From: Mycobacteriales bacterium
GTDB lineage: Bacteria > Actinomycetota > Actinomycetes > DATLTS01
Direction: 5' to 3'
Assembly (NCBI GenBank): GCA_035533475.1
Contig: DATLTS010000018.1
Location: forward strand, 1-64,000
Length of the DNA stretch: 64,000 nucleotides
Under the pieces are notes generated by a model. The model saw only the letters and a list, made by a program, of their open reading frames with translations. It was not told where the DNA came from and did not search any database. Positions 36,508-60,727 of the stretch are shown piece after piece; positions within the stretch are counted from its first letter, which is position 1, and the number at the start of each line of letters is the position of its first letter. The position numbers and the translations under genes are program-made.

Positions 36508-39500
36508 TCATGGGGAGGCGGGAACCCAGCCGACAACATCGACGGCCACATCAACCGGCGAACCGTCGGAGTACAGATTGACCATGCCGTTGGACGCCAA
36601 CTGGACGCTGACGAAGTCAGCCACGTCGTTGGTGCCGTCGTAGTTGATCGCAGATGCCGTCGGCGCGGTCGTCGCGTCGCCCGGGAAGACCCGCAGGTCG
36701 CCTCCCCCTGCCGACGGATCGATCGCTGTCACCTGAAGAAGCACCGACCTGGCGTCGGCCGGCACACCGCCGACACCGGAGACTTGGAAACCGATCACCT
36801 GGCCGGCAGGCAGCGGGCCGCTGAGCAAGCCGACCCGATCCGGAGCCGGACGGGTATCAAGAATCCGGACCGGATTTTGAGTGACCAAGGCCGTGCTGGA
36901 GTAGTAGTAGCCGGAAACGTCGACGACGAGATCCGTGTCACTGCCCGAGGTGAGGAAATCAATCTTCCCGCTCGACGGCAGCTGGGACAGCACGAACACA
37001 GCAGTGTCCTGACCGGGAATGTAGTTGATGTTCGAACTGTCCGGGGTCGGCGAGCCGTCCGGATACACCCGCAGGTTTCCGGCTCCCGCGGGACCCACGG
37101 CCGTCACGTTCAACGCCACGGCGGTCGCTCCAACCGGCACGCCACCCACCCCGGCGACAGTCACTACGCGAGGGACTCCCGGCGCCAGCTTCGCGGAACT
37201 GCCACCGGTACCATCTCGCGTGTCGATGATCCGCACTGGCGTCTGACCCTGGTACCCGGCAGCGTTCGTGCAGTAACCGACCACATCCAGCAGGGCGCCG
37301 CTCGCGCTCCCGTCGGAGTAGAGATCGACCTTCCCGTTCGACGGGAGAGACACGATCGCGTAGTTTGCCACCGTTCGGTGTGGCACATAGTTGACCGTGG
37401 ACGCGAGCGGCGCCGCGGACCCATCCGGGTAGACCCGCAGGTTCCCGGCGCCGGCCGGGCCGACTGCGGTGACGGTCATCTCCACCGCGGTCGCTGACGA
37501 CGGGACTCCGCCCATCCCGGCAACCTGGATCGGGTAGCTATTACCAGCGGCGAGCGGTGCGGACAACCCGCCCGTCCCGTTCCTCGTGTCCAAGATGCGA
37601 ACTGGAGGGAGGTTGGCGCATCCAGCCACGGCGAGATAGGTGAACTCCGCCTGCGGCACCGCCGCAGACGACCCACCCGGCGTCGTCACGGTGACATACA
37701 CCGGACCGGCTCCGCCGATGGCTGGGGACACCGCATCGATCTCGCTGCCGGACACCACGGCGAACGACTTGGCGGGGGTATCGGCGAACACCACCGAGGT
37801 GGCCCCCGTGAACCCGCTCCCGGTGATCTTCACGGGCGTACCACCTGTGGTCGGCCCGCTGGTTGGGCTTAGCCCGGTGACGCTCGGCGTCGGCCCGGTG
37901 AACGCTGCGGCCGTGTTGGTCAGGGCGAAACTGGCCGGCGACGCGCCGGAAGTACTGGCGGCGACGGTGTAACTACCGGCCGCCACCCCAGCCGTTACCG
38001 GTACCGACACCGTGCCATCGCTGCCGCTGGCCGCGCTCGAGCCGCTCGGGAAGGTCGCCGTCGCGCCGCTGGCGGCTGGGGTCGGTACAAGACTCACCGT
38101 CGCCCCGGGGATCGGGTTCTGGCCGGCATCGCGAACGATCGCGACGAGCGGGTTGGCGAAGCTCGCGCCCACGGTCGCGCTCTGCCCGCCACCGGACACC
38201 GCGGTCACCGTCGCGGGGGCGTTCACCGAAACCGTGACGTCCCCCATTGCCCATCGCTCATCGGAGCAGTTCTGGCTCAAACCATCAGCGAAGGTCAGGT
38301 TCGCGCTTGGGGAGCTGTCCGGCACGGTTTCAGTGACCCGGTAGGAGGAATCCATCCCCGCGTACGCGGAGTCGTTCGCGCCAAGCGTGTCGAACGCATC
38401 GGCCATCGCACCGGGCTGGAAATTCGACCCGTTGTGCGAGTGCGGATACGACTGCGTGGTTCCATTGTTGAAGCCGTAGTTTTGCGGTGCGGCGTCGTAG
38501 TTGTCGAAGGTGGCGCTCGGCATGACCGTGGTCGAGCCGTCGATGACGCTGAAGGTATCCGGACCGTACGCGCTGCTGTTGCCGTCCCAGGTCGCCAGCG
38601 GGTCGAATGCGAACGACACCCGCAACGACGTGTGCGCGGGCAGGTTCGAGAGCTTCAGCACCGGCTCGGCAGTGCCGTCGGGGCAACCACCGTTATCGTT
38701 GAACGGGCCCAGCAGCGTCTGCCCGTTGCCCGGGGCGACAGTCGCCGGCGACGAGAATGTGGCCGGCTGGGTAGTCGTCCAGTGACTGTCGACCCCACTG
38801 TTGAAGTTCGAGGCGTACACGGGCGCGTAGTCACTGGTATGGCTCACCGCCGTGATGGAGCTGCCGTCGCTGTCGGTGATCGTGGTCGTCACCGTGTACC
38901 CGCCAGGCTGGGCGTAGCTGTGGCTGCCGGTTACCCGGCCGCCACTCACGGTCCCGGCCGAGCTGGATCCGTCCCCCCAGGCGATCGAGGCCGTGTACGT
39001 GTCACCGGAGTTGCCGTCGGAGTCAGTGAACGTCGCCACGGCTCCGCTGAAAGCCACCGCGGCCGGCGCGTATACCGACGCCGCGGCTAGGTTGAGTCCG
39101 TTGTACTGGTAGGCACCCATGTCACAGGACCCGGGCAACGCGACCCCGCGCTGGTCGCTACCCGAACAGCTGGGCACCACGTCATGGGCCGGGCTCGCGG
39201 CGGTCAGGTCGATCGTCGCCGTCGGGCCGCCGTTGTCGGCCAGGCCGCCGTGCGCCCCGCCCGGGAACGGATTCGACTCGACGATGCTGTGCAGGGTGGT
39301 GCTGAAAGAGCAGGTGTTGCTGCCGCTCGGATTGTAGTCGAGGTTGTAGCCCGAATCGGAAGCCGCGGCATGGCAGTTGCCACCGAGGTTGTCCGCGACG
39401 ATCGTGTCGGCCAGCCCGGGCGCAGAGGCCCCACCGATGCCGCCGCCGGCCCCGCTGGGGGCAAGGTTGGTCGCGATGGTCACATGCTTCAGAGTGCCAC

Positions 39501-40419
39501 CCTGGTACATGAAGTCGAGGCCGCCCCCGGCCGTGCCGGCGGAATTGCCGGAGATCGTGCTCTCCTCGAGGTCCAGGCTGATGCTTGTGCCGGTCTCGCC
39601 GGTGTAGCCCTCGCTCAGGCCCCCGCCGTAGGCTGCACTGTTACCAGAGATCTCGCTTACCATGACGGTGGTCTGGTTTTCGTTTGCGATGCCGCCGCCG
39701 TCAATGGCGGCGGTGTTCAACGTGATCGTCGAGTCGGTAATAGTGGCCGAACCCGAGGCGCCGGCATTGTCGAGGCCGCCGCCATCACCTGAAGCCGTAT
39801 TGCCGGACACAGTAGAGGACATGACCGTCAGCGCGCTGTCGTTGTAGATCCCGCCGCCGCTACCGGCGCCGTTGGCGGTGATTACGTCGGATGTAAGCGC
39901 GAGCGAGCCGTAGTTGGCGACGCCGCCGCCTTTGGACGTCGGGCTCACCGAGCCGTGCCGGATCACCACTCCGCTCACGACAGCGTTGGCCGTCGCCGCC
40001 ACGGTCAGCACTCGGTCCAACCCGCCGCCGTCGATCACCGTCCCGCTGCTTGTCGCACCCACTCCGGAAATCGTGACGCTGCCCCCGGTGATGTTCAGGT
40101 CGCCGGTAGTAGCGTCATCCGACCCAGTAGGCGCGATCGCCAGGGTATAGCTCCCGGCCGGGACGACGACCTTTGCCGGACTGTTCGCGTTCGCCGCGAT
40201 GACTGCCTCGCGCAAGGAGCAGGGTTGGACGCTCACACACGCATTCGCAACCGGCGTGGGGTCGGCGGTGGTGGTGACCGTGTACGTGGTCACGGTAACG
40301 ACCATGATGGCCGCCGCCGGCAGGATGCCGGTGATGCCGACTACCGTCGACGCCGCGGCGATCATTGCCACCGCCGATCGGATTGTGCTCGGCCGATGAA
40401 CGTGCCGCCATCGCAACAT
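36508..40419 (-). CDS. Giant secreted protein with beta-helix, PKD, IPT and DTR repeats
   Basis: About 1,303 residues. A signal sequence (helix MIAAASTVVGITGILPAAAI) is followed by CSLREAVIAANANSP, the CSLREA motif that starts right-handed parallel beta-helix domains (to about 430). Next come a PKD-like domain (AVATFTDSDGNSGDTYTASI, then HSYAQPGGYTVTTTI), a jelly-roll-like segment, a bacterial Ig-like domain (GQSATVGASFANPLVAIVRD), an IPT/TIG domain and three copies of a module of about 120 residues, each opening with VRI-L/I-DTR and closing with DVVGY or DVSGY. It is exported and probably attached to surface polymers. RBS GAGGG fixes the ATG at 40419. Its IPT part is almost identical in DNA to the neighbour gene. 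Confidence 0.85.
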   Translation of the reverse strand: MLRWRHVHRPSTIRSAVAMIAAASTVVGITGILPAAAIMVVTVTTYTVTTTADPTPVANACVSVQPCSLREAVIAANANSPAKVVVPAGSYTLAIAPTGSDDATTGDLNITGGSVTISGVGATSSGTVIDGGGLDRVLTVAATANAVVSGVVIRHGSVSPTSKGGGVANYGSLALTSDVITANGAGSGGGIYNDSALTVMSSTVSGNTASGDGGGLDNAGASGSATITDSTITLNTAAIDGGGIANENQTTVMVSEISGNSAAYGGGLSEGYTGETGTSISLDLEESTISGNSAGTAGGGLDFMYQGGTLKHVTIATNLAPSGAGGGIGGASAPGLADTIVADNLGGNCHAAASDSGYNLDYNPSGSNTCSFSTTLHSIVESNPFPGGAHGGLADNGGPTATIDLTAASPAHDVVPSCSGSDQRGVALPGSCDMGAYQYNGLNLAAASVYAPAAVAFSGAVATFTDSDGNSGDTYTASIAWGDGSSSAGTVSGGRVTGSHSYAQPGGYTVTTTITDSDGSSITAVSHTSDYAPVYASNFNSGVDSHWTTTQPATFSSPATVAPGNGQTLLGPFNDNGGCPDGTAEPVLKLSNLPAHTSLRVSFAFDPLATWDGNSSAYGPDTFSVIDGSTTVMPSATFDNYDAAPQNYGFNNGTTQSYPHSHNGSNFQPGAMADAFDTLGANDSAYAGMDSSYRVTETVPDSSPSANLTFADGLSQNCSDERWAMGDVTVSVNAPATVTAVSGGGQSATVGASFANPLVAIVRDAGQNPIPGATVSLVPTPAASGATATFPSGSSAASGSDGTVSVPVTAGVAAGSYTVAASTSGASPASFALTNTAAAFTGPTPSVTGLSPTSGPTTGGTPVKITGSGFTGATSVVFADTPAKSFAVVSGSEIDAVSPAIGGAGPVYVTVTTPGGSSAAVPQAEFTYLAVAGCANLPPVRILDTRNGTGGLSAPLAAGNSYPIQVAGMGGVPSSATAVEMTVTAVGPAGAGNLRVYPDGSAAPLASTVNYVPHRTVANYAIVSLPSNGKVDLYSDGSASGALLDVVGYCTNAAGYQGQTPVRIIDTRDGTGGSSAKLAPGVPRVVTVAGVGGVPVGATAVALNVTAVGPAGAGNLRVYPDGSPTPDSSNINYIPGQDTAVFVLSQLPSSGKIDFLTSGSDTDLVVDVSGYYYSSTALVTQNPVRILDTRPAPDRVGLLSGPLPAGQVIGFQVSGVGGVPADARSVLLQVTAIDPSAGGGDLRVFPGDATTAPTASAINYDGTNDVADFVSVQLASNGMVNLYSDGSPVDVAVDVVGWVPASP
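37641..37904. repeat. 264-bp segment duplicated at 42113-42376 (copy 1)
   Basis: This IPT/TIG-coding stretch matches 42113-42376 base for base over its whole length apart from a modest number of substitutions (about 95% identical by eye) and without gaps. It indicates recent duplication or gene conversion between the two giant genes. Confidence 0.8.
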
Positions 40420-40479
40420 GTGGTTCCCTCGGATCGACGAAAGCTGCTCGGCCGGCCGACCGACGTCAGAATCCTGCCG

Positions 40480-40493
40480 CACGCGAAGTGCGG
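40480..40493 (-). other. Hairpin in the 5-prime region of the giant gene
   Basis: On the minus strand CCGCAC-ttcgc-GTGCGG (40493-40477) forms a stable hairpin about 60 bases before the start at 40419. It may be part of the leader; no known riboswitch pattern was seen. Confidence 0.3.
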
Positions 40494-40589: not shown

Positions 40590-43500
40590 TCATCCACCGG
40601 GGTACCAGCCGAGGACATCGAGCGCGACGTTCACCGAGGATCCGCTGCTCTCCAGGTTGATCGTGCCGGTCGAGCTGAGCCGAACGATGACGAAGTTCGC
40701 GATCGCGGACGGACCCGCGTAGTTCAGCGTCGATGCGTTCGGCGCCGAGGCGTCACCTGGATACACCCGCAGGTTTCCCACCCCGGTGGACGGTCCGATC
40801 GCGGTCACCGATAGCAGCACGGCCGAGGCGTTCGACGGCACATTGCCGGTCCCGGCGATCTTCACCGCGTACCCGGTGCCGGCAGCCAGTGGCCCGTTCA
40901 GCGTGCCGACATGATCCGTGCCGGGCCGGGTGTCGAGAACCCGCACCGGGGTTTGCGTTGCCAGCGTCGCGGTGGAGTCCAGGTAACCGACGACGTCGAT
41001 TGCCAAGTTCACGGGCGAGCCCGCGGAGACGACGTCGATCTTGCCGTCGGCCGGCAGCTGCACCACATCGAACACGGCGTGCGTCTGCCCCGCCACGTAG
41101 TTGATCGACGACGCGTTCGGCACGGCGGCCCCGTCCGGGAACACCCGCAGGTTGCCCCCGCTGCTCGGCCCGATCGCGGTGACGTTGACCAGCACCGCAG
41201 CGGCGCCGATCGGCACCCCGTCCGCGCCGGTCACCGTGAACCCGTAGGTCTTGCCCGCGGCCAAGGTGCCGGCCGTGGTGCCGGTGCCGTAGCGGGTGTC
41301 GATGGCCCGCACCGGGGCTTGCGGGTGCAATCCGGATGCCGAGGTGTAGAAGCCCACCACGTCGATGACCACGTTGCTCGCCGATCCGGCGGAGTACACA
41401 TCGATCTTCCCGTCGGCAGGAAGCTGGACGACCGCGAAGTTCGCGGTCCCTTGCCCGGGCACATAGTTGACCGTCGACGCGTTCGGCAGCGAGGCACCGT
41501 CCGGGTAGACCCGCAGGTTCCCGGCCCCCGCCGGATTCACCGCGGTCACGTTGAGGGCAACCGCGACCGCGTCGCTCGGCACCCCGTCCATCCCGGCAAC
41601 GGTGATCGCGGCGTCGTGACCTGCCGCCAGCGGTCCGGCGATCGAACCGATCCGGCTGGTGGGCCGGGTGTCCAACAGCCGCTGCGGGGTCTCCGGCACA
41701 TAGCCGGCTATACCAACCGCGAAAACGGTCCCCGTCAGACTCGCGAGCGTCGGGGTCGACGTCCCAGAAGCCGTCCAGTTCAGACACGGTGACGCACCGC
41801 CGCTTCCCGGCACGTACACCGCGGGCGGGCTCACCGACGCGTACTGGCCGGTGGCCGAGTCGTAGTAGTCCAGGACGCTGCCATCCGTACCAGGTGGGCA
41901 GAGCGAGATCGCCAGATTCTGGCTACCCGAGCTGACCTTGACGTCGAAGTACACGCCACTCGAGGTAAAGCTAGGCGAAGCCGTCTGCGGATTGCCCGAG
42001 TAGAACCCGGTAGTGATCGCGTCCCCGCTGCCGGCGCCAGTCAAGGTTTGGCCCCCGTAACTGCTCGTCGAGGATCCGTTGCCCGAAATCTGGTCGATCT
42101 CGGTGACATAAGTGAACTCCGCCGCTGGCACCGCCGCAGACGACCCACCCGGCGTCGTTACGGTGACATACACCGGACCGGCTCCGCCGATAGCTGGGGA
42201 CACCGCATCGATCTCACTGTCGGACACCACGGCGAACGACTTGGCAGGTGTGTCGGCCAACACCACCGAAGTGGCCCCCGTGAACCCGCTCCCGGTGATC
42301 TTCACAGGCGTACCACCAGTGATCGGCCCGCTGGTTGGGCTTAGCCCGGTGACGCTCGGCGTCGGACCGGTGAACGGAGGGGCGAGCGTGGTCGCGCTGG
42401 ACGAGGCGCTGGGACCCGTGAAGTCGTCGTTGCTTGCAGAGACCGCAATCGGGTACTTGGTCGAGTAGAGAAGCCCAGTCCAGGTAACGGTGTACTTCTG
42501 GCCCGAAGGCGAGGCGGTGGCAGAGGTCTGTGTCGCAGTCGACGAGGTGCCGGTGGTCGGGTTGGTGCAGCTGAAGCTCTGCGACGCCGTCGGGCTGGTC
42601 GGGATCACCGTACAGGTCACGGTGTTTGTTCCCTCGGTCAAGGCGACCGTGTACTGGGTAATGGCCGAACCGCCATTGTCGGTAGGTTGGCTGAAGCCAA
42701 TGGTCACCGAGCCGCTGCCTCCGCTGGCGATGAGCCCAGTGGGCGCGGTCGGCTTCGTCACCGCGACCAGATGCGCCCCGCTGGAATCGTAAACGACGTC
42801 GTAGTCCTCGGACGGGGACAAGACCCGGCCGTCGACGGTGGCGAAGCTGGTGCTTCCTGGGTTGCCCGCCACCACCGGGAAGGTCGCGCCCTCGGCCGGC
42901 AGATAACCGGCCGCGTTGAAGATCTGCGAGTTGCCACCCAACGAACTCGACGCGGCGGAGAGCTGGTCGTTACTCCCGGCCCCGGCGATATTGACGTCGA
43001 GCGTGCCACCCGAGCCCTGGCTGTAGGCGCCGCTCACCGTGAAGGTGCCGATCTGGTGCGGTGTGCCGCTGCCCGGCTCCACGGTTCCGCCGCTGTTGTC
43101 AACCGTGCCCGAGACTTGCCCGTCACCGGACAGGACGCCGCCACCGAGGCTGAAAGTTCCCGAGCCAAGGTTGAGCGTCGAGGTGGTCGTCCCTGACGGC
43201 TGGTTGATGTCCGTGACCGCCCCGCTGCCCGACTGCGAATAACTGGGGGCGGTCAGCGTCCCTCCGTCGAGTAGGGAGACATTTCCGGTGTTGGTCAAGC
43301 CGCCCGACAGCACTAGCGTGGCGTGGTTGAGCGAGAGGGTTCCACCGTTGGTCGCCAAGGTGAGCAGCTGCGCGCCCGAAGCGTCGAGAAGATTGCCGCC
43401 GTTGACCAATTCGACCGTGGCCTCGTTGTCGGTCACCGGAGACGACGCCGGCAGGGTGAGCGTGCCGTTATTCGCCTCGAAGGTTCCCCCGGTCAATGCA

Positions 43501-46500
43501 CCTGCGGTCGTATCCAGGTTCTGCAGGTCGCCGGAGACGGTCGTGGCAACTCCGAGGCTGTCGATCAGACCGTGGTTGACGAACGTCCCGCTCATCGTCC
43601 GCCCGGCGCTAGCCCATGAGGAGGTGTCCTGCGAGGTGATCGTCCCGCCGGCCGCGTTCGTGAACGTCGCCCCCGAACCAACCGACACCACCACCGCGTC
43701 GTTGAAGTACGTCTGGTCCAACACCAGGGTGCCGTCGTTGCTGAGCGAGTTCGGCACCGACAACGTCGTCGTCCCGGTGCTCCCGACCCCCAGGGCGTCC
43801 ACCGTGACCCCGGCCGGGATGTTCCCGTTTAGCGTGGGGCTCACCTCCACATCGACCTGCCCACACCCGGTCGTGCAACCCGCGAACGACCCCGGGAAGT
43901 TCAGCGTGCCCGAAGCCACCGTGATCGGGCTGCCAGTCACCTGGCCACCGTTCCAGTCCAACGTCGCGGTCCCAACCGAGATCCCGCCGCTGTTCGTCAC
44001 ACTCCCCGGATTGGACAGCGTCAGCGTGTCCGCGGCCTTGGTCGACGACAGCGTGGCACCCGAGCCGGTGGTCAACGTGCCGTCGCTGGCCAGCGAACCG
44101 GACCAGGACGTGTTCACGTCCACATTCAGCGAGCCGTCGTTGACGAACGTCCCGCTCAACGTCCGCCCGGCACTGCCATATGAGGCGGTGTCCTGCGAGG
44201 TGATCGTCCCGCCGGCCGCGTTCGTTAACTTCGCCCCCGAACCAACCAACACCACCACCGCGTCGTTGTAGTACGACTGGTCCAACAGCAGCGTGCCGTG
44301 GTTGCTGAGCGAGTTCGGCACCGACAACGACGTCGTCCCGGTGTTACCGATCCCCAGGGCATCCACAACCTGACCCGCCGGGATGCCCCCGGTCAGCGTC
44401 GAGCCTCCCTCCAGGTAGAAGGGAATACTCGCGGCGGTATGGCTTGCGAGGTCCAGCGTGCCGTTTAGGATCGTGAATCCGGACGCTGCATTCGCACCGG
44501 AGATCGTCCCACCTTGATAATCGAAGGTGGCGGCTTGAAGACTGAGCGTCCCGTCGACGACCAGACCGCCGCCGGCAGCCTGGGTAAATATCTGACCCGC
44601 CGCGAGGGTTAAGGACACTCCAGATTCGACGTCGAGTGAACCCCTGTTGATGAAGGACGTGCCCGTCGGCACGATCGAACTGGCGGTCGCAAAGTTGACT
44701 GCGCCCTGGTTGACGAAGGTACCGATCAGCGTCCGCCCCGCGCTAGCCCATGAGGAGGTATCCTGCGAGGTGATCGTCCCGCCGGCCGCGTTCGTGAACG
44801 TCGCCCCCGAACCAACCGACACCACCACCGCGTCATTGTTGTACCCCTGGTCCAACAGCAGCGTGCCGTAGTTCGTGAGCGAGTTAGGCACCGACAACGT
44901 CGTCGTCCCGGTGTTGGCGTTGTCCTTAGTCTCCACCGTGACCCCGGCCGGAATGTTCCCGGCTAATGTCGAGGTCCCATCCCCCACGTTCACCTGCCCA
45001 CACCCGGTCGAGCAGCCCGCGAACGACACCGGGAAGTTCAGCGTGCCGGAAGCCATCGTGATCGGACTACCAGACACCGTGCCACCGTTCCAGTCCAGCG
45101 TCCCGGTTCCGACCGAGATCCCGCCGCTGTTCGTCACACTCCCCGGAGCCGACAGCGTCAGCGTGTCCGAGCCGGCCGTTGCCGACAGTGCACCCCCACC
45201 GGTGGTCAACGTGCCGTCGCTGGCCAGCGAACCGGACCAGGACGTGTTCACGTCCACATTCAGCGAGCCGTCGTTGACGAACGTCCCGCTCAACGTCCGC
45301 CCGGCGCTGCCATATGAGGTGGTGTCCTGCGAGGTGATCGTCCCGCCGGCCGCGTTCGTGAACGTCGCCCCCGTACCAACCGAAACGGTCACCGCGTCGT
45401 TGTTGTACCCCTGGTCCAACAGCAGCGTGCCGTAGTTCGTGAGCGAGTTCGGCACCGAAAACGTCGTCGTCCCGGTGTTGGCGTTGTCCTTAGTCTCCAC
45501 CGTGACCCCGGCGGGGATGTTACCGACGAGCTTTGACGTCCCATCCCCCACGTTCACCTGCCCACACCCGGTCGAGCAGCCCGCGAAGGACCCCGGAAAG
45601 TTAATCGTGCCGGAAGTCAACGTGATCGGACTACCGGTCACCGTTCCGCCGTTCCAGTCCAGGGTCGTGCCGACCGTGGCCGTGCTGCCGACAGAGATCC
45701 CGCCGCTGTTCGTCACACTCCCCGGATTGGACAGCGTCAGCGTGTCCGTGGCGTTGGTCGACGACAGGGTCGCACCCGAGCCGGTGGTCAACGTGCCGTC
45801 GCTGGCCAGCGAACCGGACCAGGACGTGTTCACGTCCACATTCAGCGTGCCGTCGTTGACGAACGTCCCGCTCAACGTCCGCCCGGCACTGCCATATGAG
45901 GCGGTGTCCTGCGAGGTGATCGTCCCGCCGGCCGCGTTCGTTAACGTCGCCCCCGAACCAACCGACACCACCACCGCGTCGTTGAAGAACGACTGGTCCA
46001 ACAGCAGCGTGCCATCGTTGCTGAGCGAGTTCGGCACCGACAACGTCGTCGTCCCGGTGTTCCCGACCCCCAGGGCGTCCACGGTGACCCCGGCCGGGAT
46101 GTTCCCGTTCAGCGTGGGGCTCACCTCCACATCGACCTGCCCACACCCGGTCGTGCAACCCGCGAACGACCCCGGGAAGTTCAGCGTGCCCGAAGCCACC
46201 GCGATCGGGCTGCCGGTCACCTGGCCACCGTTCCAGTCCAACGTCGCGGTCCCAACCGAGATCCCACCGCTGTTCGTCACACTCCCCGGATTGGACAGCG
46301 TCAGCGTGTCCGAGCTGGCCGTCGACGACAGGGTCGCACCCGAGCCGGTGGTCAACGTGCCGTCGCTGGACAGCGCACCGGACCAGGACGTGTTCACGTC
46401 CACATTCAGCGAGCCGTCGTTGACGAACGTCCCGCTCAACGTCCGCCCTGCGCTAGCCCATGAGGAGGTGTCCTGCGAGGTGATCGTCCCGCCGGTCGCG

Positions 46501-46994
46501 TTCGTGAACGTCGCCCCGGTAGCAACCGACACCGTCACCGCGCCGCTGACATACGACTGGTCCAACAGCAGCGTGCCGCCGGCTGCCACCGTAGACCCGG
46601 TCAGGCTGGTGTTTCCGGTAAGGCTCAGGGTCAACTGACCGGTATTGTTTGGCTCGACCAGGTCAAGCGTCTGGCTTCCGGTGCCGCTGCCGGCCCCGAC
46701 AACTAACGCAAGTACCGACGTGCTGGCGTTGAGTGTGACCTTGTACGTACCGGCCGTAGTTATGCAGACCACGTCCGTGGGCCCCGGCACCATTGTGGTG
46801 CTCCAGTCTGAGGCGGTGGACCAGGATCCCCCAGAGGTATTCGTCCAGGTGTCCGTGCAGACGGGAGGAAGAAGAACGGCAGCGGCGTGCCCGGGTCGGA
46901 GGAACCAGCCGGCGACCAGCGCGGCGGCTAGGCAGAGCAGCACGACCCAGGCGCGGCGAACATGACGGAACTGACGGATCGCGATAGCTGCCAC
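40590..46994 (-). CDS. Giant secreted repeat protein (six 190-residue repeats, Fn3, IPT, DTR)
   Basis: About 2,134 residues. A basic N-terminus and helix AWVVLLCLAAALVAGWFL form a signal peptide. Residues about 145-1,130 hold six repeats of 188-194 residues; each opens with GTLLLDQ (or GTLVLDQ), then GGTITSQDT, RTLSGTFVNDG, NVDVNTSWSG, and most contain a Cys pair in SFAGC-x-TGCGQV. These read as beta-strand ladders like passenger domains of adhesins. A lower-complexity beta region, an Fn3 domain (near KPTAPTGLIASGGSGS), an IPT/TIG domain, a TEIDQISGNG module and three DTR modules follow. An extracellular adhesin or matrix protein is likely. The start is uncertain (46994 or as far as 47138). 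Confidence 0.82.
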   Translation of the reverse strand: MAAIAIRQFRHVRRAWVVLLCLAAALVAGWFLRPGHAAAVLLPPVCTDTWTNTSGGSWSTASDWSTTMVPGPTDVVCITTAGTYKVTLNASTSVLALVVGAGSGTGSQTLDLVEPNNTGQLTLSLTGNTSLTGSTVAAGGTLLLDQSYVSGAVTVSVATGATFTNATGGTITSQDTSSWASAGRTLSGTFVNDGSLNVDVNTSWSGALSSDGTLTTGSGATLSSTASSDTLTLSNPGSVTNSGGISVGTATLDWNGGQVTGSPIAVASGTLNFPGSFAGCTTGCGQVDVEVSPTLNGNIPAGVTVDALGVGNTGTTTLSVPNSLSNDGTLLLDQSFFNDAVVVSVGSGATLTNAAGGTITSQDTASYGSAGRTLSGTFVNDGTLNVDVNTSWSGSLASDGTLTTGSGATLSSTNATDTLTLSNPGSVTNSGGISVGSTATVGTTLDWNGGTVTGSPITLTSGTINFPGSFAGCSTGCGQVNVGDGTSKLVGNIPAGVTVETKDNANTGTTTFSVPNSLTNYGTLLLDQGYNNDAVTVSVGTGATFTNAAGGTITSQDTTSYGSAGRTLSGTFVNDGSLNVDVNTSWSGSLASDGTLTTGGGALSATAGSDTLTLSAPGSVTNSGGISVGTGTLDWNGGTVSGSPITMASGTLNFPVSFAGCSTGCGQVNVGDGTSTLAGNIPAGVTVETKDNANTGTTTLSVPNSLTNYGTLLLDQGYNNDAVVVSVGSGATFTNAAGGTITSQDTSSWASAGRTLIGTFVNQGAVNFATASSIVPTGTSFINRGSLDVESGVSLTLAAGQIFTQAAGGGLVVDGTLSLQAATFDYQGGTISGANAASGFTILNGTLDLASHTAASIPFYLEGGSTLTGGIPAGQVVDALGIGNTGTTSLSVPNSLSNHGTLLLDQSYYNDAVVVLVGSGAKLTNAAGGTITSQDTASYGSAGRTLSGTFVNDGSLNVDVNTSWSGSLASDGTLTTGSGATLSSTKAADTLTLSNPGSVTNSGGISVGTATLDWNGGQVTGSPITVASGTLNFPGSFAGCTTGCGQVDVEVSPTLNGNIPAGVTVDALGVGSTGTTTLSVPNSLSNDGTLVLDQTYFNDAVVVSVGSGATFTNAAGGTITSQDTSSWASAGRTMSGTFVNHGLIDSLGVATTVSGDLQNLDTTAGALTGGTFEANNGTLTLPASSPVTDNEATVELVNGGNLLDASGAQLLTLATNGGTLSLNHATLVLSGGLTNTGNVSLLDGGTLTAPSYSQSGSGAVTDINQPSGTTTSTLNLGSGTFSLGGGVLSGDGQVSGTVDNSGGTVEPGSGTPHQIGTFTVSGAYSQGSGGTLDVNIAGAGSNDQLSAASSSLGGNSQIFNAAGYLPAEGATFPVVAGNPGSTSFATVDGRVLSPSEDYDVVYDSSGAHLVAVTKPTAPTGLIASGGSGSVTIGFSQPTDNGGSAITQYTVALTEGTNTVTCTVIPTSPTASQSFSCTNPTTGTSSTATQTSATASPSGQKYTVTWTGLLYSTKYPIAVSASNDDFTGPSASSSATTLAPPFTGPTPSVTGLSPTSGPITGGTPVKITGSGFTGATSVVLADTPAKSFAVVSDSEIDAVSPAIGGAGPVYVTVTTPGGSSAAVPAAEFTYVTEIDQISGNGSSTSSYGGQTLTGAGSGDAITTGFYSGNPQTASPSFTSSGVYFDVKVSSGSQNLAISLCPPGTDGSVLDYYDSATGQYASVSPPAVYVPGSGGASPCLNWTASGTSTPTLASLTGTVFAVGIAGYVPETPQRLLDTRPTSRIGSIAGPLAAGHDAAITVAGMDGVPSDAVAVALNVTAVNPAGAGNLRVYPDGASLPNASTVNYVPGQGTANFAVVQLPADGKIDVYSAGSASNVVIDVVGFYTSASGLHPQAPVRAIDTRYGTGTTAGTLAAGKTYGFTVTGADGVPIGAAAVLVNVTAIGPSSGGNLRVFPDGAAVPNASSINYVAGQTHAVFDVVQLPADGKIDVVSAGSPVNLAIDVVGYLDSTATLATQTPVRVLDTRPGTDHVGTLNGPLAAGTGYAVKIAGTGNVPSNASAVLLSVTAIGPSTGVGNLRVYPGDASAPNASTLNYAGPSAIANFVIVRLSSTGTINLESSGSSVNVALDVLGWYPGG
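42113..42376. repeat. 264-bp segment duplicated at 37641-37904 (copy 2)
   Basis: The partner of 37641-37904; both encode the IPT/TIG domain (VTGLSPTSGP, then GGTPVKITGSGFTG). Most differences are silent third-base changes. Confidence 0.8.
43569..46577 (-). repeat. Six tandem coding repeats of about 564-582 bp
   Basis: GTLLLDQ codon anchors occur at 46557-46577, 45993-46013, 45411-45431, 44847-44867, 44277-44297 and 43713-43733, giving unit lengths 564, 582, 564, 570 and 564 bp; the sixth unit is partial. Units 1 and 5 are almost identical over about 290 bp (43741-44032 against 46021-46312). Unit 4 is divergent in its middle. Confidence 0.9.
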
Positions 46995-47195
46995 CGCTGG
47001 GCCCCCGCACCTGTGATTCCACCGGAAGCGAAGCCCGCTTCCGAGTGCAGCGCCGACTATCACAGGGCTTGCCGCATTTCGGCGCTCGTACAGGAAACAA
47101 TGAGCCGAACGTTTGCTCAAGCAGCCTGTTCTGACCACGCACGCCTGGTTACGAGTGACCAGGTGGCGAACACCCGAACGCCGGCCGACTCCCGA
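46995..47195. other. Leader region upstream of the repeat protein
   Basis: Two hairpins are visible on the minus strand: CCTGGT-n8-ACCAGG (near 47140) and GGAAGC-gggcttc-GCTTCC (near 47030). They may be leader structure. I could not match them to a c-di-GMP or c-di-AMP riboswitch. Confidence 0.35.
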
Positions 47196-58192: not shown

Positions 58193-60727
58193 TCAGCTGA
58201 CCGACGACACGCAGCGGTCGATCGGGATCCACGCCGCGTTGCCCTGCGGGTCGCGCACCACCATGTCGGCGTCGGTGAGGTAGCCGCCGTGGTGGTGGTC
58301 GCCCTGGCTGAAGTCGACGTCGCAGTTCGGCGGCACGGTCCGGTGGTAACCGGCGAGCAGGATGCCGGCCATCCGGTTGCGCGTGCAGTTCGGCCCGCAC
58401 TCGAGGAACAGGTCGCGGATCCCGCGTTGCGCCTCCCAGTTGAGAAACAGCAGGTCACCGCCGTCCCCGCCCAGGTTCGCTCCCGGGTCGTAGGCCTTGT
58501 ACTCCCGGTTGAACTCGAGGATGTCGCTCGTGTAGGACGAGTACGGGCCGCCCGACCAGGTGCTGTCGTAGGGGTCCCAGGCGGCGATCCCGTAGAGCGG
58601 CTGCTGGAGCGCGGCCGCGCCGAGCGTCTTGATCGTGAGGTTGAACGGGAAGACCAGCCACGAGGGGTAGTACTTCTGCCCCTCGGCCTGCTGGATCATC
58701 TCGGTCGCGGCGAGCGCGTTCTCCAGGGCGAAGACGGCGGTCACCCCGGCGGTCTTGAGCTGGAACAGATCCTGGGTGTAGTTGCCCTGGTTGATCTGGA
58801 CCGGGTAGTCGAAGACCTGCACCCCGGCGGCGCGCAGCATCTGCTCGAAGATGTCCCGCGCCGGCTGCCAGTTCGGGCTGTCCCGCCAGATCACACCCAC
58901 CTTCTGGCCGCGGAACTTCGCCAGCGCGAGCTGTCCGAACCAGGTGCCCATCTGCTCGAGCGTGGGCAGGGCGGTGAAGCTGTAGTGCAGTCCGGCCGAC
59001 CCCTCCACGGTGGCGATGTGGTGCAGGTAGAGCTCGTGGTTCTGCTCGGCCCAGACCCGCACGGCCGGGATCTGGTCGAATCCGATCCCGCCGAGCAGCA
59101 TGAACGTGCCGGCGTCCTTGCAGGCCTGTGCCGCCTGCACGGCGGTCCCCGGGTCGTAGTTGTCGTTCTGGTAGCTGGCGTTCACCGTGCGCCCGTACAC
59201 GCCGCCGTGGGCGTGGATGTAGTCCCAGTACACGTTCAGGTCGCTCGCCTTGATGTCGAACGCCTGACCGTAGGTGAGGGCGGCGTGCGCGCACAGGGTG
59301 ATCTGCTTCGCGGTGATGCCGATCGTGTCGTCGGCGCCGGAGTACATCTGGGCCACCGGCGGGCCGCCGTTGGACGGGAAGAAGACCCGGACGCCGTCGA
59401 TGGTCTCGTAGTGCCCCGGCCCGGAGAACTCGCTGGCCTGGGCCGCCGTCGACGACGCGGTGGTCGGGGCACCGACCGACGAGGAGCCAGCCGCCCCGGT
59501 GACGGCCACTCCGGTGACGGCGCCGGTCGCGGTCCCGGACCGGGCGCCGGGCCCCGCGCTGGCACTCGCGGTGGGCCCGGGCGCGGGCCCGCCGTTCAGG
59601 GCGGTCGACGGCGACCCGGTCGCGGCGACGGTTCCGATCGTCGGCCTGCTCTGGTCGAGGGAGTACCCGGAGTACACGAGTCCCCAGACCACGGCGACCG
59701 ACGCGACCGAATAGGCCCGCGGATGGGCCCGGAACGCGGCAACCGACGGCGGGCCGACCTTGGCCGCGAAGGCGGACAGCCTGGCCGGGACGAAGCGCAG
59801 CTGGTCGCGGTGCGCGGTCGCGATCGCGCCGGCCCCGACCAGGAGGCAGCCGAGCAGGACCCAGGGCCACCACACGGTGCCGCCGCCGCGCGAAGCCGGC
59901 GCAGCCGGGGCGGCGGCCGCCGGTGCCGGGGCGGGCGGGGCGAGGCTCGGCGCCGGGCTGGTGCCGGGCGGCGCCACCGCCGCCTGGCTGGTCGCAACGC
60001 TGGCCGGCGGCGGCGCGGGCACCGGCGCGGGTGCCCGGGTCACCGCAGATGCGCCCGGGACCGGTGCCAGGGTCGCGGGCGTCACCGGGGCGGCGGGCGC
60101 TGCCGGGGTCGCCGGGAACTCGTACTCGGCTACCGCGGTAGTCAGGCTGACGTAATACGCGACGGCCCAGGCGTCCGACGGGCCGGACGAGATCGGGATG
60201 AGGACGAGCCCGGTGTTGCCGTGCACCCGCCAGTACCCGACGAGCTCACGCAGGTCGAAGACCCAGGTGTCGTAGGCGGCGTTCGGCTTGCCGATCGCGG
60301 AGCCGTGCGCGCAGTCGTAGGCGGGGGCATTCGAGGCGGTCAGGCTCGCCGGGATCGGATGGACGAGGGCGCAGGCCTCCACGATCGCCGAGCTGGGATT
60401 GACGTTGTAGACCTGGTAGACGCTGGTGTTCGACGCGCCCGACTGATTGGTGAGGTGGAAGGTCGCAACGAGGTCGAGCGGGACCGCCCCGGCGGGCAGG
60501 TAGTCGAGCGCGAAGTGCACGTAGGAGCGGGCCAGTTCCTGGCCGGCGTTCACCGAGACGTGGATGGAGGAGGGGTCGCCGTTGTAGGGATCGACGGGAG
60601 AGTCGGTGACGTAAGACTGCCGGTCCGGCGGAATCGCGCTGGAGTCGGGTGCGGCGACCGCGGTGGTCGCGAGGCCGGAGAACAGTCCGACCGCGAGCAG
60701 TCCGCTCGCCAGGGTGCGCCTCTTCAT
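58193..60727 (-). CDS. Two-TM substrate-binding fusion protein (surface domain plus Peripl_BP_6 domain)
   Basis: An unusual 844-residue protein. A signal peptide (1-26) is followed by a beta-rich domain (27-205) resembling DNRLRE carbohydrate-binding modules (RSYVHFALDYLPAGAV, TWVFDLRELVGYWRVHG). A Pro/Ala linker leads to a membrane helix (285-304), a basic loop of about 35 residues, a second helix (340-356), a Ser/Gly/Thr linker and a Peripl_BP_6-type ligand domain (from about 468 to the end: ITLCAHAALTYGQAFDIKAS, YQNDNYDPGTAVQAAQACKD, LLGGIGFDQIPAVRVW). Both large domains should face outwards. It lies before livH and is the receptor of the ABC system. AAGGGG precedes the ATG. Confidence 0.85.
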   Translation of the reverse strand: MKRRTLASGLLAVGLFSGLATTAVAAPDSSAIPPDRQSYVTDSPVDPYNGDPSSIHVSVNAGQELARSYVHFALDYLPAGAVPLDLVATFHLTNQSGASNTSVYQVYNVNPSSAIVEACALVHPIPASLTASNAPAYDCAHGSAIGKPNAAYDTWVFDLRELVGYWRVHGNTGLVLIPISSGPSDAWAVAYYVSLTTAVAEYEFPATPAAPAAPVTPATLAPVPGASAVTRAPAPVPAPPPASVATSQAAVAPPGTSPAPSLAPPAPAPAAAAPAAPASRGGGTVWWPWVLLGCLLVGAGAIATAHRDQLRFVPARLSAFAAKVGPPSVAAFRAHPRAYSVASVAVVWGLVYSGYSLDQSRPTIGTVAATGSPSTALNGGPAPGPTASASAGPGARSGTATGAVTGVAVTGAAGSSSVGAPTTASSTAAQASEFSGPGHYETIDGVRVFFPSNGGPPVAQMYSGADDTIGITAKQITLCAHAALTYGQAFDIKASDLNVYWDYIHAHGGVYGRTVNASYQNDNYDPGTAVQAAQACKDAGTFMLLGGIGFDQIPAVRVWAEQNHELYLHHIATVEGSAGLHYSFTALPTLEQMGTWFGQLALAKFRGQKVGVIWRDSPNWQPARDIFEQMLRAAGVQVFDYPVQINQGNYTQDLFQLKTAGVTAVFALENALAATEMIQQAEGQKYYPSWLVFPFNLTIKTLGAAALQQPLYGIAAWDPYDSTWSGGPYSSYTSDILEFNREYKAYDPGANLGGDGGDLLFLNWEAQRGIRDLFLECGPNCTRNRMAGILLAGYHRTVPPNCDVDFSQGDHHHGGYLTDADMVVRDPQGNAAWIPIDRCVSSVS

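What the first reader, a model, noticed from the sequence alone, without database searches (positions are those of the whole stretch)
43569..46577. Six near-identical 190-residue repeats in a giant surface protein
Regular units of 564-582 bp with stretches close to identical (43741-44032 against 46021-46312) show recent exchange. A Cys pair is kept in most units. Copy number should vary among strains, as in length-variable adhesins.
Basis: seen in the sequence. Interest (0 to 1): 0.62.

Follow-up and report, generated by a model that had tools for sequence, protein, structure and literature searches.

The report
Recombining stalk repeats on triplet-tailed protein
A giant secreted protein of an actinobacterium-like organism carries a stalk built from about five recombining 190-residue repeats and ends in an uncatalogued module that almost always comes as exactly three copies and may fix such proteins to the cell surface.

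Summary
The repeat array is real but overstated. The 2182-residue ORF (40590-47138, minus strand) holds four full units of 188-194 aa (85-93% nt identity), a fifth whose middle is unrelated (60-64%), and a sixth truncated to about 56 residues: not six near-identical copies. The quoted 98% match is correct. Unit 5 is a mosaic of unit 2 (first half) and unit 1 (second half), with low dS, so recombination is supported. A model of two units is all-beta, pLDDT 85. Its PDB hits are mostly parallel beta-helices but none is significant. No relative of the unit was found in sampled class and phylum genomes, GTDB contigs, viral contigs or plasmids, so copy-number variation is untested. The protein has a signal peptide, fn3, TIG and no sortase motif. 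Its C-terminus is three ~122-aa domains without a Pfam or NCBIfam family. In other actinobacteria this module almost always occurs as exactly three consecutive, position-specific copies, on varied enzymes and stalks. Its model resembles the homotrimeric Bd2133 fibre tip. Best reading: a recombining beta-solenoid stalk on a non-covalent triplet surface module that works like SLH x3 or CWB2 x3 without belonging to either family.

The parts
40590..46994 (-). Gene of the giant secreted protein (ORF opens at 47138; likeliest start GTG at 46994, just before the signal peptide)
   Evidence: codon-position GC fits a coding gene. Start choice is inferred.
46881..46994 (-). Signal peptide (VAAIAIRQFRHVRRAWVVLLCLAAALVAGWFLRPGHAAA); the only strongly hydrophobic segment in the protein
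   Evidence: Kyte-Doolittle scan
46581..46856 (-). Leading segment of the solenoid region (residues 95-186)
   Evidence: sequence; inference
46017..46580 (-). Repeat unit 1, full, CxxxC
45435..46016 (-). Repeat unit 2, full, CxxxC, 6-residue insertion
44871..45434 (-). Repeat unit 3, full, CxxxC
44301..44870 (-). Repeat unit 4, unrelated middle, no Cys pair
43737..44300 (-). Repeat unit 5, mosaic of unit 2 (first half) and unit 1 (second half), CxxxC
43569..43736 (-). Repeat unit 6, first ~56 residues only
42759..43568 (-). Diverged continuation of the solenoid-like region (residues 1191-1460)
   Evidence: weak match of the unit profile at 43371-43736; rest inferred from sequence
42402..42746 (-). 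Fibronectin type III domain (below Pfam cut-off, E 0.00055)
42101..42383 (-). IPT/TIG domain, 261/283 nt identical to that of the neighbouring gene (37629-37911), with sharp edges
41313..41678 (-). Tail domain copy 1
40947..41312 (-). Tail domain copy 2
40593..40946 (-). Tail domain copy 3, ends at the stop codon
36508..40482 (-). Neighbouring giant secreted protein (ORF coordinates; CSLREA, choice_anch_Q, PKD, TIG) with the same tail triplet at 36511-37602

Best explanation
The array is the stalk of a giant secreted protein. Each ~188-residue unit forms several coils of an all-beta solenoid, and head-to-tail units make a long rod. Units are duplicated, converted and lost by homologous recombination between copies, which makes mosaics such as unit 5. 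Neighbouring genes also trade whole domains (the TIG). Fn3 and TIG domains link the stalk to the C-terminal triplet of ~122-aa beta-sandwich domains. I infer that the triplet folds as one single-chain pseudo-trimer that holds the protein non-covalently on the cell surface, so that the N-terminal solenoid points outward and unit number sets its reach. Shown: repeats, mosaic, signal peptide, domain order, fixed triplet. Inferred: solenoid handedness, anchoring, orientation, variable length.
For: Array and mosaic: (unit 1/5 run of 22 concordant variable sites, permutation p=0.001; dS 0.09 for units 1/5 against 0.19-0.24 for the other full-unit pairs). All-beta model, pLDDT 85, pTM 0.85; most of the PDB hits are parallel beta-helices, though not significant. 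Signal peptide, no other strongly hydrophobic segment, no terminal LPXTG. Triplet: exactly three copies in 65 of 69 closed ORFs, 50 of those ending within 4 residues of the stop. Nearest neighbour has the same copy index in 164 of 222 cases. Found on pullulanase, subtilase, amidase, beta-helix, PKD and cutinase-family proteins, at either end. All 18 plasmid hits are Actinomycetota. Single-copy model matches the homotrimeric Bd2133 tip, E 4e-4 (PMC10769870). A second triplet protein in this genome has three fn3-like repeats, closest pair 94% nt identical: different stalk, same tail.
Against: No structural hit for the repeat model reaches E 0.001, and its alignment had only five overlapping rows. 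No strain or species comparison exists. The tail fold match is modest (TM 0.54, 15-17% identity) and the whole triplet was not modelled. Anchoring has no direct evidence, and a triplet on secreted enzymes could equally bind a substrate.
Confidence: 0.5

Rival explanations
1. The triplet is the binding head (lectin or carbohydrate-binding tip), not the anchor; the protein is a released or otherwise attached adhesin.
For: Fold neighbours are the Bd2133 adhesive tip and several carbohydrate-binding modules; weak profile hit to an agarase chain, E 0.003; fusion to pullulanase and amidase suits substrate binding.
Against: Fused proteins have unrelated substrates (pullulan, peptidoglycan, protein, cutin), and no other anchor is seen in the window protein.
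Confidence: 0.3
2. The array count is partly an assembly artefact: an identical unit was collapsed or units were misjoined.
For: Draft of 68 contigs. Four contig ends fall inside tail modules, in two pairs whose ends overlap by 75 and 34 nt, so this assembly does break in such repeats. Exact repeats of 107, 97 and 91 nt lie in the array.
Against: Each unit carries private sites, the frame is open throughout, and the array sits well inside a 181,567-base contig.
Confidence: 0.12
3. Similarity of units reflects selection on sequence alone, with old duplications and no recent exchange.
For: Many invariant residues between units.
Against: Synonymous divergence is also low, and similarity changes partner abruptly along the unit.
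Confidence: 0.06
4. The solenoid is a catalytic beta-helix (polysaccharide lyase type) rather than a stalk.
For: Some PDB hits are PL6 lyases and a polygalacturonase.
Against: Not significant; no Pfam enzyme family; near-identical tandem units are not typical of catalytic beta-helices (own knowledge).
Confidence: 0.07

Closest known systems
Periscope Proteins (SasG, Rib, Sgo_0707; PMC8201768)
   Same: Tandem, highly similar folded units in a long secreted surface-type protein, with signs of recombination between units
   Different: Known examples vary in unit number between strains; Sgo_0707 has an N-terminal ligand-binding domain and a C-terminal LPXTG. Here variation is untested, there is no LPXTG, and units are 78-89% alike in protein
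CWB2 cell wall proteins of Clostridioides difficile (PMC4973711)
   Different: No CWB2 match in Pfam; all-beta tail model, whereas the CWB2 trimer has an inner three-helix bundle (PMC6081394)
SLH domain trimer (PMC6081394)
   Same: Three tandem copies forming a pseudo-trimer that anchors proteins in Gram-positive walls
   Different: Helical core, PF00395 not matched; ligand here unknown
Bd2133 MAT fibre tip of Bdellovibrio (PMC10769870; 8ok3, 8ond)
   Same: Best fold match of one tail copy (E 4e-4, TM 0.54); Bd2133 trimerises through this tip
   Different: One copy per chain and homotrimer there, three copies in one chain here; no sequence match
Parallel beta-helix passengers (UpaB, TibA, Ag43, EtpA)
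   Same: Repetitive beta coils in secreted adhesins; they are among the fold hits
   Different: Not significant (best E 0.6); no autotransporter barrel in the protein; actinobacterial host

Membership tests
Periscope Proteins | Tandem array of highly similar folded repeats | tested here: met
   Four full units at 85-93% nt identity, all-beta model pLDDT 85; units 4 and 6 only partly
Periscope Proteins | Repeat number varies between strains | not testable with these tools
   No relative below class level held
Periscope Proteins (Sgo_0707 type) | C-terminal LPXTG wall anchor | tested here: not met
   No motif at the C-terminus
Right-handed parallel beta-helix proteins | Significant fold match to a solved beta-helix | tested here: inconclusive
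   Many beta-helix hits but best E 0.6; no Pfam beta-helix
SLH-anchored proteins | PF00395 SLH domains | tested here: not met
   No SLH hit in the window proteins or in 38 tail copies; tail model is all-beta
CWB2 proteins | PF04122 motifs | tested here: not met
   No CWB2 hit
Triplet wall-anchor kind (SLH or CWB2 like, by function) | Exactly three position-specific copies at a protein end on varied proteins | tested here: met
Triplet wall-anchor kind (SLH or CWB2 like, by function) | Binds a wall polymer | not testable with these tools
   Needs a binding assay
Bd2133-type MAT tip | Same fold, trimeric | tested here: inconclusive
   E 4e-4, TM 0.54 for one copy; triplet assembly not modelled (cap reached); no sequence hit

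The most novel reading that the evidence does not exclude
The C-terminal module is an undescribed domain family of Actinomycetota (with single Chloroflexi and Dormiibacterota MAG hits) that works as a single-chain pseudo-trimer: three differentiated beta-sandwich copies fused in one chain take the place of a homotrimeric fibre tip and fix unrelated secreted proteins to the cell surface, with recombining stalks in front.
Probability: 0.35. Interest if true: 0.7.

Novelty: new variant of a known kind. Interest (0 to 1): 0.45.

Why it matters
The array alone is an ordinary example of recombining stalk repeats, in a lineage where no relative of the unit was found. The triplet matters more: it is widespread in Actinomycetota, attached to many secreted enzymes and giant proteins, nearly always counted in threes, and without a Pfam or NCBIfam family. 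If it is a wall anchor it explains how many sortase-free actinobacterial proteins stay on the surface, and it gives a direct binding test.

Tried and rejected
Relatives of the repeat unit: 60 nearest genomes, 395 of the class and 397 of the phylum, GTDB contigs, viral contigs, plasmids: none. PDB sequence search with units: none. Tail-bearing loci searched for the unit: none. Self-BLAST of tail proteins gave no off-diagonal hits even for the window protein, so it was discarded and replaced by a lag-identity scan. Weak Pfam and NCBIfam hits of the array (DUF5916, a beta-lactamase exception model) rejected as chance. PDB sequence hits of the tail profile other than the agarase (E 0.3 or worse) rejected. 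Literature search for the tail motif found nothing relevant. A first alignment of all six tail copies was too diverse for the contig scan, so three copies were used, which biases the loci found towards close relatives.

Full report
OBSERVATION. The repeats lie in a single ORF on the minus strand, 40590-47138, 2182 residues. Direct repeats start at 43570, 44134, 44704, 45268, 45850 and 46414 with spacing 564, 570, 564, 582 and 564. Read as protein the units are residues 187-374, 375-568, 569-756, 757-946, 947-1134 and about 1135-1190. Units 1, 2, 3 and 5 are full and 85-93% identical in DNA; unit 4 is 60-64% identical because its middle ~110 residues are unrelated, and unit 6 stops after ~56 residues. 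The CxxxC pair is in units 1, 2, 3 and 5 only. So 'six near-identical' is an overstatement, though the quoted 98% match of 43741-44032 with 46021-46312 is correct.

EXCHANGE. Unit 5 matches unit 2 at about 92-100% in its first half and unit 1 at 97-100% in its second half. Among 111 variable sites, units 1 and 5 share a run of 22 concordant sites (permutation p=0.001) and units 2 and 3 a run of 13 (p=0.0016); six pairs were tested, so the weaker pairs should not be leaned on. dS is 0.09 for units 1/5 and 0.19-0.24 for the other full pairs. This is the pattern of intragenic recombination, not of selection alone. The TIG domain is also 261/283 nt identical to that of the next gene, with abrupt loss of similarity at both edges, so a domain-sized transfer between neighbours occurred too.

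ASSEMBLY. The contig is 181,567 bases and the array is internal to it. The longest exact repeats in the array are 107, 97 and 91 nt. Four contig ends of this draft lie in tail modules of other genes, in two pairs overlapping by 75 and 34 nt, so the assembler did stop in such sequence. A collapsed identical unit cannot be excluded, but the units present are distinguishable.

STRUCTURE OF THE ARRAY. AlphaFold on two consecutive units with five overlapping rows gave pLDDT 85, pTM 0.85, strands only. Foldseek against the PDB gave no match with E below 0.001; most of the 45 listed hits are parallel beta-helices such as UpaB, EtpA, TibA and alginate lyases, with TM mostly 0.1-0.3. I take a beta-solenoid as likely but not proven.

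DISTRIBUTION. The unit profile found nothing outside this genome in 395 class genomes and 397 phylum genomes, nor in GTDB contigs, viral contigs or plasmids. Records of very near genomes may be hidden from some of these searches. Copy number in strains is therefore untested.

REST OF THE PROTEIN. A signal peptide precedes the solenoid and is the only strongly hydrophobic stretch; there is no LPXTG at the C-terminus. After the array come a weak fn3, a TIG domain (from the 92% match with the neighbour's Pfam-supported TIG), and three tandem ~122-aa domains up to the stop. The adjacent gene 36508-40482 has a different N-terminal part (CSLREA, choice_anch_Q, PKD) and the same TIG plus triplet.

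THE TRIPLET. No Pfam family is matched by more than two of 38 tail copies, and none strongly; NCBIfam has none over the tail in the proteins scanned; the only PDB sequence hit below 0.01 is a marginal agarase chain. The module occurs in 19 of 60 class genomes, in 41 named loci mostly from Actinomycetota with one Chloroflexi and one Dormiibacterota MAG, and in 18 plasmids, all actinobacterial; none in phages. In 65 of 69 closed ORFs there are exactly three copies; 50 of the 65 end within four residues of the stop and 15 carry 150-880 further residues. These loci come from profile hits and are not a random sample. The nearest neighbour of a copy in another locus has the same index in 164 of 222 cases, against about 74 expected, so the three positions are old and distinct. 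Partners include subtilase, pullulanase, amidase, DUF1501, beta-helix and PKD proteins and, with the triplet near the N-terminus, a cutinase-family and an RHS-core protein. A model of one copy (pLDDT 81) best matches the Bd2133 fibre tip (E 4.2e-4, TM 0.54), which is a trimeric beta-sandwich (PMC10769870).

MECHANISM. CWB2 and SLH modules also come as three copies on varied surface proteins; CWB2 triplets sit at either end and the copies are non-identical and cannot replace each other (PMC4973711, PMC6081394). By analogy, and because no other anchor is visible, I propose that the triplet is a pseudo-trimeric surface anchor and the array a stalk whose length can change by recombination, as in Periscope Proteins (PMC8201768). 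In the same genome another triplet protein (contig C59) has three fn3-like repeats, the closest pair 94% identical in DNA, so stalks vary while the tail stays. The rival, that the triplet is a glycan-binding head, is not excluded.

VERDICT. Array: real, ordinary in kind, overstated in number. Triplet: an uncatalogued module that deserves a binding test.

Noticed in passing
40593-41678 and 36511-37602, minus strand: Triplet of ~122-aa tail domains without Pfam or NCBIfam family, nearly always three position-specific copies across Actinomycetota.
   Followed up: yes
42101-42383 and 37629-37911: TIG domains of two adjacent genes 92% identical in DNA with sharp edges, between otherwise dissimilar sequence: domain-sized transfer.
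   Followed up: yes
L101:2591-3546 (own genome, contig C59): Another triplet protein (looks like LamG plus fn3) with three tandem 282-bp fn3-like repeats, the closest pair 94% identical.
   Followed up: partly
L097, L098, L099, L102 (contigs C20, C40, C66, C29): Four contig ends of this draft lie inside tail modules; the ends pair up by overlaps of 75 and 34 nt, so two further triplet genes are probably split.
   Followed up: partly
L104, L105 (actinobacterial plasmids): Triplet placed near the N-terminus in front of a cutinase-family protein and an RHS-core protein.
   Followed up: partly
59527-59617, plus strand: ARAGORN reports a tRNA with a four-base anticodon and no assigned amino acid; it overlaps predicted coding sequence and is probably spurious.
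   Followed up: no
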